Translations under genes and position numbers: made by a program | From: a virus | Strand: one strand, 5' to 3' | IMG/VR virus record: IMGVR_UViG_3300050821_010452 | Location: 1-41,104 of that record | DNA length: 41,104 bases | In this document: one piece after another, positions 1,709-9,082 of the stretch | Numbering within the stretch: position 1 is the stretch's first letter | Layout of the letters: the number at the start of each line of letters is the position of its first letter | The notes under the pieces: model-generated | Seen by the model: the letters and a program-made list of their open reading frames with translations, nothing else | Databases searched by the model: none | Told to the model about the DNA's origin: nothing

Positions 1709-2337
1709 AAATAGAACTAAACGACCTACCCGATTTGTCATTTGGATCCCATGATTCATTCGAAGACGGGATTTGCATAATGGAAGCGGTTGCCTACGTG
1801 GCCGGTGAACCGTTCAGCGATCATCCAACCTGTGCATGCCCAGTGATGTCCAACTTTTTGCGAGCATGGAATGACGATCTAAATCAAGTGGATCGGCAGA
1901 TGCTTAAGCCGCTGATTTCCAAGCTTGTTAATAGCAAGTCCACTCCTAAAATAGAGACAAAGCGTAAAGAGCTCATCAGCGACTGGTATTTCAAAGTCCA
2001 CGCTCCGACCTGGCTTGAAATGGCGGGATTAACGGATCACGCAGCGGACGCTCGCGAAAACGGGATTAATGCAAACTGGGCCGCTGCCGGGGCCGCTGCC
2101 AGGGCCGCTGCCGGGGCCGCTGCCAGGGCCGCTGCCAGGGCCGCTGCCAGGGCCGCTGCCAGGGCCGCTGCCAGGGACGCTGCCAGGGCCGCTGCCTGGG
2201 CCGCTGCCAGGGCCGCTGCCAGGGCCGCTGCCGGGGCCGCTGCCTGGGCCGCTGCCGGGGAAAAACTGCGGCCGGCGGTCGAGAAATTGCAGAAAAGCGC
2301 GATGGAATTAATCGAGCGCTGTTTGGAGCTCAAGTGA
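1705..2337 (+). CDS. Conserved phage protein with long alanine tetrad repeat
   Basis: 210 residues. Residues 20-75 hold a motif I associate with a widespread phage family of unknown function: ICIMEAVAYVAGEPFSDHP, then CACPVMSNFLRAWND. From about residue 125 to 185 the protein is fifteen 4-residue units of the form X-Ala-Ala-Ala, with X mostly Arg, Gly or Trp. The last 24 residues form an amphipathic helix (EKLRPAVEKLQKSAMELIERC). The repeat would form a long alanine helix with Arg/Trp at i, i+4 positions along one side, possibly for nucleic acid or membrane contact. The start and stop are both 4-base overlaps, which supports the whole frame being translated. Confidence 0.7.
   Translation: MKIELNDLPDLSFGSHDSFEDGICIMEAVAYVAGEPFSDHPTCACPVMSNFLRAWNDDLNQVDRQMLKPLISKLVNSKSTPKIETKRKELISDWYFKVHAPTWLEMAGLTDHAADARENGINANWAAAGAAARAAAGAAARAAARAAARAAARAAARDAARAAAWAAARAAARAAAGAAAWAAAGEKLRPAVEKLQKSAMELIERCLELK
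2077..2259 (+). repeat. 12-bp tandem repeat inside the alanine-repeat gene
   Basis: Fifteen tandem copies of a 12-bp unit close to GGCCGCTGCCAG, with substitutions mainly at the base that sets the first codon (Arg, Gly or Trp) and one GAC. Because 12 is a multiple of 3, all frames stay open and the other forward frame would give a PLPG repeat. The array is a likely site of slippage and copy-number change between isolates. Confidence 0.9.
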
Positions 2338-4748: not shown

Positions 4749-5881
4749 ACGCGGCGGAGGTCGACGAGCGGGCTGGGCTGCCATCGGCGAGTTTTTCGCT
4801 CAAATACAAATGCCTTGGCGCCTGGAACCTGATCCAGGCCTGCAAGAAAGCTGGGCTTTTCACCGACGATGGCGGCGCTGCCGCGGAGAGCGGAACCGAG
4901 ATCCACCGGGCGCTAGCTGGCGAGGACGTGGAGCTCAACGACAGCCAGGAGGACATGCGCCAGACATTGACGCGAATCGAGCTCAACACAGTCGAGGCGC
5001 TTTATCCGGGACTCATGCTCTACGCGCGGGAACGGCGCATCTGGTTGCGGCGCGGACTCAAACCCGTGTTCAGCGGTAAGTACGACTCGGCCTATGCAGA
5101 CACCAAGCTTGAATGCGCTGCGATATTTGATTCAAAGACCGGCCGGCTTGAGGTCGACGCCGCCGAGCGTAACTATCAGATGCGTGACCTGGCCGCGCTC
5201 TGGCACTACGAACGCCCAGCGACTCAGCAAGTGGACGTCGTCGTCATTCAACCGCTGATTACGCACGAGCCATCGATTGCGCGCCATCACTTTGACGAGC
5301 TCGGGCAAGCGCTGGCCGACTTGCGGCTGAACCTCGAGCAGATTGCCGATCCGGACGCTCCGCGCACGCCCGGGCATCACTGCCGGCACTGCGCGGCTCG
5401 GGCTCATTGCGACGAGGCAAAGTCCTATAGCATTCAAGCGCCGCGGGTCTTGCTGCAGGCGATCGAGCGCGGTGACATCGTTCTCCCTCTGGGCGAAAAA
5501 GGCCGCAGTGTGCTGGAGTCAATCGACGTCGGCTACACGATCCTGGATAAACTCTGGGACGCTTACGAGGCCGCGGTGATAGCCGACCCGGCCGCGATCC
5601 CGGGCTGGATCATGCAGGAGGGCGCCGAACGCCGGGAGATCGTCGACTACGTCAAAGCGCGAACGATCCTATTCGAGGCAGAGGTTCCGGAGGAAGACCT
5701 CGATGCCGCCAGCGTGCTCAGGCTCGGCGACGTTGAAAAGTCGTTTCTCAACCGCTGCGGCATGATTCAAGCCAAGGGGAAAAGGAAGTTTAACGACCTG
5801 CTTAGGGAGGTGATCAAGCTCAAGCACTCCAAAGCTAGTTTACGGCCGGTGGCGCAGAGAGGAAAGCGAGCGAAAAAATGA
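4745..5881 (+). CDS. PD-(D/E)XK nuclease with probable iron-sulfur cluster
   Basis: 378 residues. It resembles the Cas4/RecB-like (DUF2800-type) phage nucleases: an N-terminal ASFSLKYKCLGAW with Cys23, AAAESGTEIHRAL near residue 50, then GKYDSAYAD and the catalytic FDSKTG with Asp129 and Lys131, followed by a Gln-containing AERNYQMRDLAALW helix. Cys213, Cys216 and Cys222 (CRHC then C) with Cys23 match the four-cysteine iron-sulfur staple of this superfamily. It probably resects DNA ends for the annealing protein encoded just upstream. The C-terminal 130 residues are a helical extension ending in a basic tail. The start overlaps the upstream stop by ATGA. Confidence 0.8.
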   Translation: MNAAEVDERAGLPSASFSLKYKCLGAWNLIQACKKAGLFTDDGGAAAESGTEIHRALAGEDVELNDSQEDMRQTLTRIELNTVEALYPGLMLYARERRIWLRRGLKPVFSGKYDSAYADTKLECAAIFDSKTGRLEVDAAERNYQMRDLAALWHYERPATQQVDVVVIQPLITHEPSIARHHFDELGQALADLRLNLEQIADPDAPRTPGHHCRHCAARAHCDEAKSYSIQAPRVLLQAIERGDIVLPLGEKGRSVLESIDVGYTILDKLWDAYEAAVIADPAAIPGWIMQEGAERREIVDYVKARTILFEAEVPEEDLDAASVLRLGDVEKSFLNRCGMIQAKGKRKFNDLLREVIKLKHSKASLRPVAQRGKRAKK

Positions 5882-5954
5882 AATCTTTGGCAAGGTGTGG
5901 CGTGCTGCAGTGCGGTTCGGTAGGGCTCGATTCCGGCTCGTCGGTACGCGGAAA

Positions 5955-5983
5955 GCCGCCGGTCGGGAAAACTGGCCGGCGGC
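5955..5983 (+). promoter_or_regulatory. Strong hairpin in the 5882-6021 gap
   Basis: The 140-bp gap between the nuclease gene and the next gene contains an inverted repeat: GCCGCCGG pairs perfectly with CCGGCGGC and the stem can extend by two or three pairs around a GGAAAAC-type loop. No run of T follows, so it is not a clear intrinsic terminator. It could be an attenuator, a protein-binding site or an mRNA processing/stability element. It is one of few real gaps in the early operon. Confidence 0.5.
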
Positions 5984-6021
5984 ATCCATTGGGAAATGAT
6001 TTTCAGTGAAAGGAAAACCAA

Positions 6022-6888
6022 ATGAGCAAGCAAATAACTAAGACAAAAAGTAGTGAACCGCAAGTGATAGACGTTCTTAGAATCTCGATGGGACGCATAA
6101 CGTTTTGCGTACTCGGGACGACACCGATGATTATGAATCGGATGTCAGAAAAGGCTCGGCAAGAATTGCTGTTGCCAGGCCGCAAGAAAAACATGGCCGA
6201 GCGATCGGTTACTCTAAAGCATAATCCGCCGGAGGAATTCAGGCTTTCGGCATATCGTACACTCGAGCAAGGTTCGCCGACCAGGATTATTGTTCCGGGA
6301 GGCTCGTTTGCATCCGCCTTGGCTGATGCGGCACTTGATACTCCTGGCGCTACCAAGGCTCAAATGCAGCGGCTAACCAGAGTTCCGGACATCAATGTCC
6401 CGCTCTACGGACTGCCAGAGTTGTTTATGGCGGTGGTCCGAACAGCGGGAATCAACAAAACGCCGGACATCCGGACTCGGGCGATATTTAAGGAATGGGC
6501 AGCCTATGTCCATGTGACCTACGTTAAAGACCTGCTGACCGAGCGCAGTATTACCAACCTGTTTGCGGCGGCCGGATTCATTTGCGGGATCGGCGACTGG
6601 CGTGGGCAAAAGGGCGGCTCCTACGGTTCGTTTGAGCTGGTCAACGAAGACAATAAAGACTTCCAACGGATTATTCGGACAATGGGTAAAAGTGCCCAAG
6701 ATAAGGGATTAAAAGAGGAGCATCCGTATGATTATGAAACCGAGGAACTGCTCTCGTGGTTCCGCTCCGAAATGATCATTCGGGAAAAACAAGGAAGCAA
6801 AGAGATCGATGGCATCCCGGTCTTTAAAAATGGCCGCAAGCCGACAGTCAAAGTTGAAACCGAAAACGGAGAATTGGTCGCATGCTAA
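6022..6888 (+). CDS. Conserved phage protein of the recombination region, function unknown
   Basis: 288 residues. Landmarks: GTTPMIMNRMSEKARQELLLPG near residues 32-54, VPLYGLPELFMAVVRTA around 127-142, TPDIRTRAIFKEWA around 147-160, and GIGDWRGQKGGSYGSF around 194-208. I recognise this set of motifs from other temperate phages, where it sits beside nuclease and annealing genes, but no biochemical role is known to me. An upstream GAAAGGAAA stretch 7-15 bases before the ATG may serve as ribosome binding site. The following gene overlaps its last codons. Confidence 0.7.
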   Translation: MSKQITKTKSSEPQVIDVLRISMGRITFCVLGTTPMIMNRMSEKARQELLLPGRKKNMAERSVTLKHNPPEEFRLSAYRTLEQGSPTRIIVPGGSFASALADAALDTPGATKAQMQRLTRVPDINVPLYGLPELFMAVVRTAGINKTPDIRTRAIFKEWAAYVHVTYVKDLLTERSITNLFAAAGFICGIGDWRGQKGGSYGSFELVNEDNKDFQRIIRTMGKSAQDKGLKEEHPYDYETEELLSWFRSEMIIREKQGSKEIDGIPVFKNGRKPTVKVETENGELVAC

Positions 6889-7355
6889 CACTGGAACAAA
6901 AGAGATTGGCGATCGAAGAGATCGAGGCAAGGCACGGCACCGCGTCACCGAATATAGTGGTGAAAGAGGCCGTGAATCCAAAGCACGTTTTGCATCCTCT
7001 ATTTGATTGGAATGACAAATCAGCTGCGCACAAACACCGACTGGATACAGCTCGCAACTTGATCGCAAGCGTGAGGATCGTCGTCGAAATCGATGATCAT
7101 GTGACAAAGGCAATCGCCTACGTGCATGACCCGGCGGCCGGCCGCAACCAAGGATACGCGTCCATAGCAAGCCTTGCCAAACGGCGGGAGGACGCACAAC
7201 AGGCGGTATTAGTGGAGTTAGAGGGAATCATAGCTAGAATCGAACGGGCTCGGTCAGTCGCGACGGGTCTCAATCTCGAGGAATATTTCGAGGCGATGTT
7301 GCGTAACGCTACCACGGCCAAGATCCGAATTAGCAAGCGCAAGAAAGCGGCATGA
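6882..7355 (+). CDS. Conserved phage protein, helical, function unknown
   Basis: 157 residues. It holds a motif that recurs in phage recombination regions: HPLFDWNDKSAAHKHRLDTARNLI at about residues 37-60. The C-terminal half is mainly helical and ends with a strongly basic tail (ISKRKKAA), so nucleic-acid contact is possible. It overlaps the 6022 gene by 7 bases and is followed immediately by the G-rich non-coding block. No function assigned. Confidence 0.65.
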   Translation: MLTLEQKRLAIEEIEARHGTASPNIVVKEAVNPKHVLHPLFDWNDKSAAHKHRLDTARNLIASVRIVVEIDDHVTKAIAYVHDPAAGRNQGYASIASLAKRREDAQQAVLVELEGIIARIERARSVATGLNLEEYFEAMLRNATTAKIRISKRKKAA

Positions 7356-7866
7356 TTAGGGAGAAGCAAGGCCGGCATGGTGCGAGAAGGAAGGGAAGGC
7401 ACGGACGGGCGCGCAAGGTCGGTTAAGACGCGAACTGGCGCGAAAAAGCAAGGCAGGCGGGGAGCGGTAGTTAATTTGGCAAGCGCTGGACCGACTTGAT
7501 GAGTTAGGTAATGGCAGGCGCGACGAGACGCGGCCGGAACAGGCAAGATTTGGCTGGGACGTGGCAGGCGAGGAATGAGATAGGCGCGGAGCGACCTGGT
7601 GGGATGGCTCGAGGCTTGGAGAGCGCAGGCAGGCAGGCGAGGACAGGCTGGGGATCGATGTGTTTGGGAGAGGTGAGGTCTGGCGAGGCGCGAATGGGCA
7701 GGCGCGTCTCGGCCGAGGGACTGGAATCGGGATGTTCCGGTAAGGCGAGGCATGGAGAGAATTGGACAGGCAGGCGAGGGAATCGAGGCGCGAGACGTTC
7801 GAGCTTGGCGCGATGCGGCGAAGCCTGGTCTGGAGTGGTCCGAAAAGAAAAGGCAGGCCCGGTCTG
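7356..7866 (+). other. G-rich non-coding block with 5-nt phased GG dinucleotides
   Basis: About 510 bases of purine-rich top strand with no convincing gene. GG pairs recur at spacings of 5 or multiples of 5. For example, GG starts at 7729, 7739, 7744, 7749, 7754, 7764 and 7769 all share one register modulo 5, and those at 7787, 7807, 7817, 7827, 7832, 7837 and 7852 share another. Register changes are mostly single-base slips at GGCAGG. Typical words are GGCGA, GGCAG, TGGCG and GGCGC. A period of 5 is incompatible with codon structure. A (GGNNN)n transcript or strand could fold into two-tier G-quadruplexes; that is inference. The short gap 7867-7936 leads to the HNH gene. Confidence 0.75.
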
Positions 7867-7936
7867 ACTGATAGCGGAGGTCAATCCCTCTGGCGGATCC
7901 AAACAGTAAATGAAAATGAAAGGAGTTCACTAAAAT

Positions 7937-8233: not shown

Positions 8234-9082
8234 ATGTCCGCCAAGCTGCCATGGTTCCCGTTTTTTCCGAACGATTACCTGAGTGATTCCAACGTAATCG
8301 CGATGAACCGGGCGCAGCGGGGATCTTACGCCAATCTTTTGTGCATTGCCTGGAATATGCAGCCCAAAGGAACGCTGCCGGATGACGACGAACTGCTGGC
8401 AGCGTGGGCACAGTGCAGTGCCGAGGAGTGGCTGAACGACAAACCCTACGTCATGAGATCCTTTAAACTCGTCGACGGCGTATGGACACAAAAGAGGCTC
8501 TATCTGATCGGATCCGAGCAGGACGACTTCCACAATAACCGAGTAAAATCCGGTCGAAAAGGTGGCTCAGCTAAAGCTCAGCTAGAGCACAGCTATAGCT
8601 CAGCTAAAGCTCAGCTAAAGCTCGCCCATAGCTCCGCCTTAGAAAACCAAAACCAAAACCAAATAACAGAAGCTAGCTCACGCGCGCGCACACGCGAGCC
8701 GGCCGGTTCAGGCAATGGAAACAAGCCACATTCACCAAGCAAGCAAGCAAGCGAGCATTTGTTGGATCTTTCTGAAGCAAGCATTGAAGAGCTGCAAGCC
8801 GAGCACCCGAGGCTTGGGGTGCGCGCGCTGATCCCAGTGGCGGCGAAGAAGTGCGCAAAGCGCCACCCACAAGGTGGTCCGATGAAGCTCCCGTTTTTCA
8901 AAGCGTTCCTGGACCGGGAGGAAAAGAACCTGGATCCGCCGGGACTGATCGAAACAAGGAAAGAGAAAGCCGAGCAGATGGAGGAAGCGGTGAGAGATCG
9001 CAACTTAACTCCGGAGGAAGAGGACGCGATGCGCAAGCAGATGGCCAAAGAACTTCGAAAATTCCGCGCTGAAGAACTATAA
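8234..9082 (+). CDS. DUF1376 domain replication protein
   Basis: 282 residues. Residues about 5-90 match DUF1376 (PWFPFFPNDYLSDSNVIAMN, then RGSYANLLCIAW and LPDDDELLAAWAQCS), a winged-helix domain found at the N-terminus of phage replication initiators and helicase loaders. A linker at about residues 110-160 contains a SAKAQLE/SAKAQLK direct repeat and NQNQNQ, a low-complexity pattern usual in this family. The C-terminal 110 residues are helical and charged. It is the only replication protein recognised in the rightward operon and probably recruits host replication proteins. It begins right after the HNH stop (TAAATG). Confidence 0.75.
   Translation: MSAKLPWFPFFPNDYLSDSNVIAMNRAQRGSYANLLCIAWNMQPKGTLPDDDELLAAWAQCSAEEWLNDKPYVMRSFKLVDGVWTQKRLYLIGSEQDDFHNNRVKSGRKGGSAKAQLEHSYSSAKAQLKLAHSSALENQNQNQITEASSRARTREPAGSGNGNKPHSPSKQASEHLLDLSEASIEELQAEHPRLGVRALIPVAAKKCAKRHPQGGPMKLPFFKAFLDREEKNLDPPGLIETRKEKAEQMEEAVRDRNLTPEEEDAMRKQMAKELRKFRAEEL

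What the first reader, a model, noticed from the sequence alone, without database searches (positions are those of the whole stretch)
7356..7866. Non-coding G-rich block with a drifting 5-nt GG register
About 510 bases of the top strand show GG pairs locked to a 5-base spacing over long runs (seven in one register at 7729-7769, seven in another at 7787-7852; similar runs at 7507-7572, 7583-7628 and 7672-7697), with occasional one-base slips. This cannot be codon-driven and is not a simple tandem repeat, because words vary (GGCGA, GGCAG, GGCTG, GGAAT). It lies within the recombination/replication module, on the transcribed strand. Possible roles: G-quadruplex-forming RNA or DNA, a recombination hotspot or replication element, or a binding array for one of the nearby proteins. 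I have an impression of similar blocks in unrelated phages near homologues of the 6022/6882 genes, but cannot verify it.
Basis: partly seen in the sequence, partly recalled or inferred. Interest (0 to 1): 0.78.

Follow-up and report, generated by a model that had tools for sequence, protein, structure and literature searches.

The report
Phage guide-RNA array of VIPR type
The odd G-rich block is an array of guide RNAs for VIPR, a phage-encoded, CRISPR-like DNA-recognition system first described in a 2026 preprint; in each five-letter unit a fixed part is held by the carrier protein and two variable letters spell the DNA target, probably genes of competing phages.

Summary
A period-5 model with slips gains 77 nats on 7356-7866, against 8.9 +/- 3.7 for dinucleotide shuffles; periods 3 and 4 gain almost nothing. 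The fitted unit is G-(G/A)-(C/T/A)-N-N. It is not a protein gene or a G-quadruplex track: it matches the vrRNA (guide RNA) array of a VIPR system (Viral Interference Programmable Repeat, preprint PMC13142463).

The gene at 6022-6888 is a Vipr-like RAMP: its family profile hits the solved SUSP1 Vipr protein (E 4.6e-11) and its predicted fold matches Csm3/Cas7. The gene at 6882-7355 is a candidate accessory gene.

In 61 of 61 relatives with enough flank, a same-strand array lies beside this gene, never on the other strand; 246 kb of control DNA had none. SUSP1, as positive control, gives its four published vrRNAs. A second vrRNA candidate with a hairpin tail lies upstream (5889-5983).

Beyond the paper's main text: this clade relaxes the second G, and arrays carry 4-nt 'GGCA' units about one guide apart. 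NN letters behave like codon positions 1-2, supporting the published 1-nt skip. No target of the window's guides was convincingly found.

The parts
5889..5949 (+). candidate upstream vrRNA: about 11-12 five-nt units, 9 in one unbroken register (GGCAA GGTGT GGCGT GCTGC AGTGC GGTTC GGTAG GGCTC GATTC ...)
   Evidence: sequence; the only other place in the window with a positive period-5 score; parse. SUSP1 likewise has one vrRNA upstream of vipr (PMC13142463).
5955..5983 (+). strong 12-bp hairpin directly 3' of the upstream vrRNA candidate; possible vrRNA 3' tail
   Evidence: fold of 5945-6000: -30 kcal/mol, z -4.7 against dinucleotide shuffles; no U-run, no terminator called
6022..6888 (+). vipr-like gene (288 aa, RAMP fold, phrog_4652; C-terminal ~80 aa extension of low model confidence)
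   Evidence: family profile against PDB 36pp_D 'SUSP1 Vipr protein' E 4.6e-11; hhalign 97.7%; AF2 model pLDDT 82.7, Foldseek top hits Csm3/Cas7/gRAMP E about 2e-5, prob 1.0
6882..7355 (+). candidate vap (VIPR accessory) gene, 157 aa, phrog_15946; overlaps the vipr-like gene by 7 nt
   Evidence: present in 73 of 80 loci found by the vipr search, and the vipr-like gene is present in 79 of 80 loci found by its own profile; confident model (pLDDT 95.8) without a significant PDB fold match; no detectable relation to the SUSP1 neighbour protein
7356..7866 (+). vrRNA array: about 100 units, 5-nt G(G/A)YNN repeats with interspersed 4-nt units
7452..7455 (+). GGCA 4-nt unit (putative guide boundary mark); others start at 7513, 7563, 7628, 7632, 7697, 7769, 7852
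   Evidence: Viterbi parse; the same mark in related arrays
7782..7851 (+). longest unbroken guide segment, 14 units; NN = GA GC AC CG TT GC GC GA CT CT GT CC AA AA
   Evidence: best codon phase is positions 1-2, sense

Best explanation
The block is the guide-RNA (vrRNA) array of a phage-encoded VIPR system. It is transcribed with the vipr-like gene (6022) and the accessory gene (6882). Copies of the small RAMP protein coat the RNA, one per 5-nt unit, holding the conserved G(G/A)Y part, while the two variable bases of each unit are presented for pairing. Strung together with a one-base skip, those dinucleotides recognise double-stranded DNA, the skip falling on codon wobble bases, and silence genes of competing phages or other mobile elements. 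Shown here: the periodic code, the protein family and fold, the near-universal linkage and strand, the array hypervariability, and a codon-phase signature in the clade. Inferred from the SUSP1 experiments in PMC13142463: transcription, RNP formation, DNA binding and silencing; one protein per unit is also inferred. The GGCA 4-nt units probably punctuate successive guides (inference).
For: Period-5 signal. Vipr homology and RAMP fold. Same-strand array beside the gene in 61/61 relatives with sufficient flanks, 0/61 on the other strand, 0 in 246 kb of control segments. Arrays on the gene's strand in 290 of 292 cases. Reverse test: of 120 contigs found by (GGCNN)7GG alone, 86 carry the vipr-like or vap-like gene. 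18 of 21 bacterial or archaeal genome loci also have an array. Positive control: SUSP1's four vrRNAs are found, one upstream and three downstream, as published. Variable letters are near random between segments of one array. They fit codon positions 1-2 (+242 nats over decoupled letters, +718 over swapped letters; orientation coherent within a guide, 0/1000 permutations).
Against: The window's scaffold is looser than the published GGY: only 50 of 86 five-nt units start with GG and 34 with GGY. Unbroken runs are mostly 7-9 units. No constant structured 3' tail was found in the downstream array. No exact target was found for its longest guide in viral or genome contigs. Expression was not testable.
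Confidence: 0.93

Rival explanations
1. The array is a decayed VIPR relic: the missing second Gs are mutations and the system no longer works.
For: Only 58% of 5-nt units keep GG and several slips break the register.
Against: The same relaxed profile occurs in the closest relative L087 (A .21/G .65, 65% identical protein) and in L007, L009, L012, L014-L017, L021 and L023, whose arrays are long; L088/L089 have A at the second position in 83% of units and L108 has GGANN at 78%. Units without GG keep a G at position 1 or 2 almost always. Both genes are intact. This looks like a clade-specific scaffold, not decay.
Confidence: 0.08
2. An RNA or DNA decoy or assembly scaffold for the RAMP protein, with no base-paired target (a TRAP-like 5-nt binding array).
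For: Only the scaffold letters are conserved, and no target was found for the window's guides.
Against: The variable letters carry a codon-position signature with a consistent orientation per segment across 904 guides, which a passive scaffold would not; SUSP1 VIPR is experimentally a guide system (PMC13142463).
Confidence: 0.06
3. G-quadruplex element, switch-like recombination hotspot or replication origin.
For: Strong G skew (0.46 at 7500-7799).
Against: Only 12 G-runs of three or more in 511 nt; the signal is a fixed 5-nt phase with two free letters, tied to a RAMP gene and its strand in phages with different gene neighbourhoods.
Confidence: 0.01
4. A protein-coding region (open frames 7511-7867 + and 7118-7930 -).
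For: Both frames are open; one related array is annotated as a CDS (UmaThurman gp40).
Against: No period-3 component at all (gain 0 nats); no Pfam or PHROG match above chance level; in G-rich DNA poor in TTA, CTA and TCA the minus frame is open by composition.
Confidence: 0.01

Closest known systems
VIPR systems (Viral Interference Programmable Repeat; Vipr protein + vrRNA; Escherichia phage SUSP1, type II; PMC13142463, PDB 36pp)
   Same: phage-encoded RAMP protein with an adjacent accessory gene; 5-nt units with a fixed G-rich part and two free letters; arrays in intergenic gaps upstream and downstream, same strand; codon-wobble signature consistent with a 1-nt skip
   Different: detectable protein similarity to SUSP1 Vipr is confined to the C-terminal ~55 residues; the accessory protein is not detectably related to SUSP1's; the downstream array is continuous with GGCA 4-nt units instead of separate ~100-nt RNAs; the second G is relaxed to G/A
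Class 1 CRISPR effector RAMPs (Csm3, Cmr4, type VII Cas7)
   Same: predicted fold of the 6022 protein; guide RNA coated by repeated RAMP subunits with periodic unpaired bases
   Different: no CRISPR array and no other cas genes seen in the neighbourhood examined; unit 5 nt instead of 6; guide letters non-contiguous
TRAP (trp RNA-binding attenuation protein) NAG-repeat RNA (own knowledge)
   Same: RNA repeats at about 5-nt spacing bound by a multimeric protein
   Different: unrelated fold; a single regulatory leader, no variable guide letters

Membership tests
VIPR | Vipr protein: ancestral RAMP with RRM core and G-loop | tested here: met
   PDB 36pp_D E 4.6e-11, hhalign 97.7% over the G-loop region, Foldseek RAMP hits; G-loop residues G189, G191, R194, G202 invariant or nearly so in 98 sequences
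VIPR | vrRNA of alternating GGY/NN units, 9-16 repeats | tested here: met
   period 5, unit G(G/A)YNN in the window, GGYNN in 236 related arrays; relaxed in the window, where unbroken runs are mostly 7-9 units (longest 14). The paper allows 'a related consensus'.
VIPR | hypervariable NN, conserved scaffold | tested here: met
   NN identity between segments of one array about 0.25-0.30 except next to the 4-nt mark
VIPR | vrRNAs in intergenic regions around vipr and vap, phage-encoded | tested here: met
   the window is a virus record
VIPR | adjacent vap gene | tested here: inconclusive
   the 6882 gene is consistently adjacent but not related to the SUSP1 neighbour protein; the vap1-6 sequences are in a supplement that could not be read
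VIPR | invariable structured 3' tail of each vrRNA | tested here: inconclusive
   hairpin after the upstream unit; none identified in the downstream array
VIPR | 1-nt skip target recognition at codon wobble | tested here: inconclusive
   clade-level codon-phase tests support it; the small-database full-guide test shows no enrichment; no target for the window's guides
VIPR | vrRNA expressed and co-purifying with Vipr; DNA silencing | not testable with these tools
   needs RNA-seq, pull-down and a reporter assay
CRISPR-Cas (class 1) | direct repeats alternating with unique spacers, plus cas genes | tested here: not met
   no repeat-spacer array in the block; no cas family match among the neighbouring genes scanned

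The most novel reading that the evidence does not exclude
In this large clade of VIPR systems the guides are stored head to tail in one continuous array and punctuated by a one-base-short unit (GGCA, or GGCG/GGCT/GACG constant within an array), giving a guide boundary or processing signal with no repeat or handle; and the scaffold letters have drifted to G(G/A)YNN, GAYNN or GGANN in step with their own Vipr proteins.
Probability: 0.4. Interest if true: 0.68.

Novelty: new member of a known kind. Interest (0 to 1): 0.6.

Why it matters
VIPR is proposed as a precursor of class 1 CRISPR and uses a guide code unlike any other known. This window adds a member from a lineage far from the experimentally studied SUSP1 type, with a looser scaffold. 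The survey links two protein families of unknown function (phrog_4652, phrog_15946) to the system and shows arrays beside them in phages and prophages of many hosts (mycobacteria, Gordonia, cyanobacteria, Proteobacteria, Myxococcales, Selenomonadaceae, one archaeal bin). The GGCA punctuation and the codon-phase statistic give target-free ways to read guides and can be tested directly.

Tried and rejected
Rfam: no match. Protein-coding, tandem-repeat and tRNA readings: rejected. Target searches under the 1-nt skip rule: 10- and 11-unit forms of the window's longest guide gave 0 hits in viral and genome contigs. The upstream 9-unit guide gave one exact hit, in a csf2-like gene of a phage-borne type IV CRISPR locus (L287); about one hit is expected by chance (my estimate, about 1e11 positions / 4^18) and its skip does not fall on the wobble base, so it is not counted. 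No self-match in the window. Guides of prophage relatives: 0 hits in five of the loci's own genomes and in 398 and 298 family genomes; a mycobacteriophage guide: 0 hits. Full guides against the 2.3 Mb of fetched loci: no enrichment for skip 1, the database being small. One L078 guide matches 10 of 10 units, wobble-aligned, in a small membrane-protein gene of phage L071 and of two other contigs: suggestive only, since it was picked as the best of many. Searches failed for tool reasons (query form or handle), and 41-42 because some alignment rows were not eligible for folding.

Full report
What was checked. The 511-base block is G-rich (44% G). GG pairs show autocorrelation peaks at lags 5, 10 and 15 that dinucleotide-preserving shuffles reach in 0, 0 and 1 of 2000 cases. 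A periodic model that allows one-base slips is much sharper: period 5 gains 77 nats, shuffles gain 8.9 +/- 3.7, period 3 gains nothing. The fitted unit is G (.92), G/A (.67/.21), C/A/T (.46/.25/.22), then two nearly free letters. Units lacking GG almost always keep a G at position 1 or 2 (parse). On both strands of the whole window the model scores positive only over this block and its edges, and at 5851-5970, immediately upstream of the 6022 gene.

Neighbourhood. The block follows two overlapping genes: 6022-6888 (phrog_4652, no known function) and 6882-7355 (phrog_15946, no known function). An exonuclease gene lies upstream, and HNH and primosomal-type genes downstream. Relatives of the 6022 protein in Mycobacterium, Gordonia and cyanobacterial phages sit in different gene neighbourhoods. 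Yet each of the five related loci first fetched (L001, L003-L006) carries a (GGYNN)n array near the gene, with scores of 21-49 against at most 4 in shuffled 41-kb sequence.

Survey. Profiles of the two proteins were used on viral contigs, and a pure DNA pattern, (GGCNN)7GG, was used in the opposite direction. Of 80 loci found by the first protein, 72 have an array at the strict setting; of 80 found by the second, 69; of 120 found by the pattern alone, 86 carry one or both genes. The other 34 include arrays at contig ends and weak, short matches; I did not resolve them further. Allowing the relaxed unit, and counting only loci with at least 1.5 kb on both sides, 61 of 61 have an array on the gene's strand and none on the other strand. 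Control segments more than 3.5 kb away (246 kb) have none. Of arrays within 3 kb, 290 of 292 are on the gene's strand; where both genes are present, 128 lie downstream of the second gene, 41 between the genes and 33 upstream. In bacterial and archaeal genomes 21 loci were found, 18 with an array.

Identity. The family profile of the 6022 protein hits one solved structure well: 36pp chain D, 'SUSP1 Vipr protein', E 4.6e-11. The next hits are unrelated and weak. An AlphaFold2 model from 98 family members (pLDDT 82.7) matches Csm3, type VII Cas7, Cmr4 and gRAMP proteins with probability about 1. The paper, PMC13142463, describes VIPR: a phage-encoded RAMP, an accessory gene, and vrRNAs of 9-16 GGY/NN units whose NN letters pair with DNA under a one-base skip that usually falls on the codon wobble base. 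It reports experiments on SUSP1. I fetched the SUSP1 locus as a positive control: the same scanner finds one array upstream of the vipr gene and three downstream, as published.

What this clade adds. (1) Scaffold drift: the window's relaxed second G is shared by its nearest relative (L087, 65% identity) and several others; in some relatives the second base is mostly A (L088, L089) or the third is (L108). The paper mentions related consensus forms, so this may already be covered in its supplement. (2) Punctuation: in 236 related arrays, 1352 units are one base short, 886 of them exactly GGCA, and the gaps between them peak at 39-74 nt, that is 7-14 five-nt units. Some arrays use GGCG, GGCT or GACG instead. 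The letters on either side are not conserved beyond the next unit, so there is no handle, only the short unit. The window has eight. (3) Codon phase: over 904 guide segments from 125 loci the NN letters fit codon positions 1-2, sense or antisense, with +242 nats over decoupled letters and +718 over swapped letters. The mixture weights themselves largely follow base composition and should not be over-read. Orientation is consistent within a segment (permutation z 4.4; split-half r 0.18, 0/1000) and not detectably across the short unit (r 0.01 or 0.09, not significant; within r 0.14, 2/2000). This supports the one-base skip independently of target matches and fits the short units being guide boundaries, without proving it.

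What was not shown. Transcription, processing and binding were not testable. The window's own targets were not found: exact scans gave none for the longest guide. For the upstream guide there was one hit at about the chance level, in a csf2-like gene of a phage-borne type IV CRISPR locus, which I do not count. The second gene's role rests on position; its fold has no significant match and it is not related to the SUSP1 neighbour protein.

Verdict. The explanation is a system made public in 2026, so the finding is a new member of a known kind, with clade-specific features worth following.

Noticed in passing
L003 6628-6951 (Gordonia phage UmaThurman gp40): An annotated 'hypothetical protein' gene lies almost wholly inside the vrRNA array (6620-6930) and is probably a misannotation.
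   Followed up: partly
L004 5839 (Mycobacterium phage Saal gp51): The annotated start of the vipr-like gene overlaps the end of the array; the true start is probably further downstream.
   Followed up: no
L287 2165-2190, minus strand: Exact 9-unit match of the window's upstream guide inside a csf2-like gene, next to csf1/csf3-like and cysH-like genes on a viral contig; about one chance hit expected.
   Followed up: partly
L071 5990-6020, minus strand (also L310, L311, L312): A guide of phage L078 matches 10 of 10 units, wobble-aligned, in a small conserved membrane-protein gene; a possible target.
   Followed up: partly
L307: A vipr-like gene with a strong period-5 array on a contig binned as a Parvarchaeota archaeon.
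   Followed up: no
window 2078-2260: 15 copies of a 12-bp tandem repeat (GGGCCGCTGCCA).
   Followed up: no
window 8565-8634: 11-bp tandem repeat GCTCAGCTAAA inside the DUF1376/primosomal-type gene.
   Followed up: no
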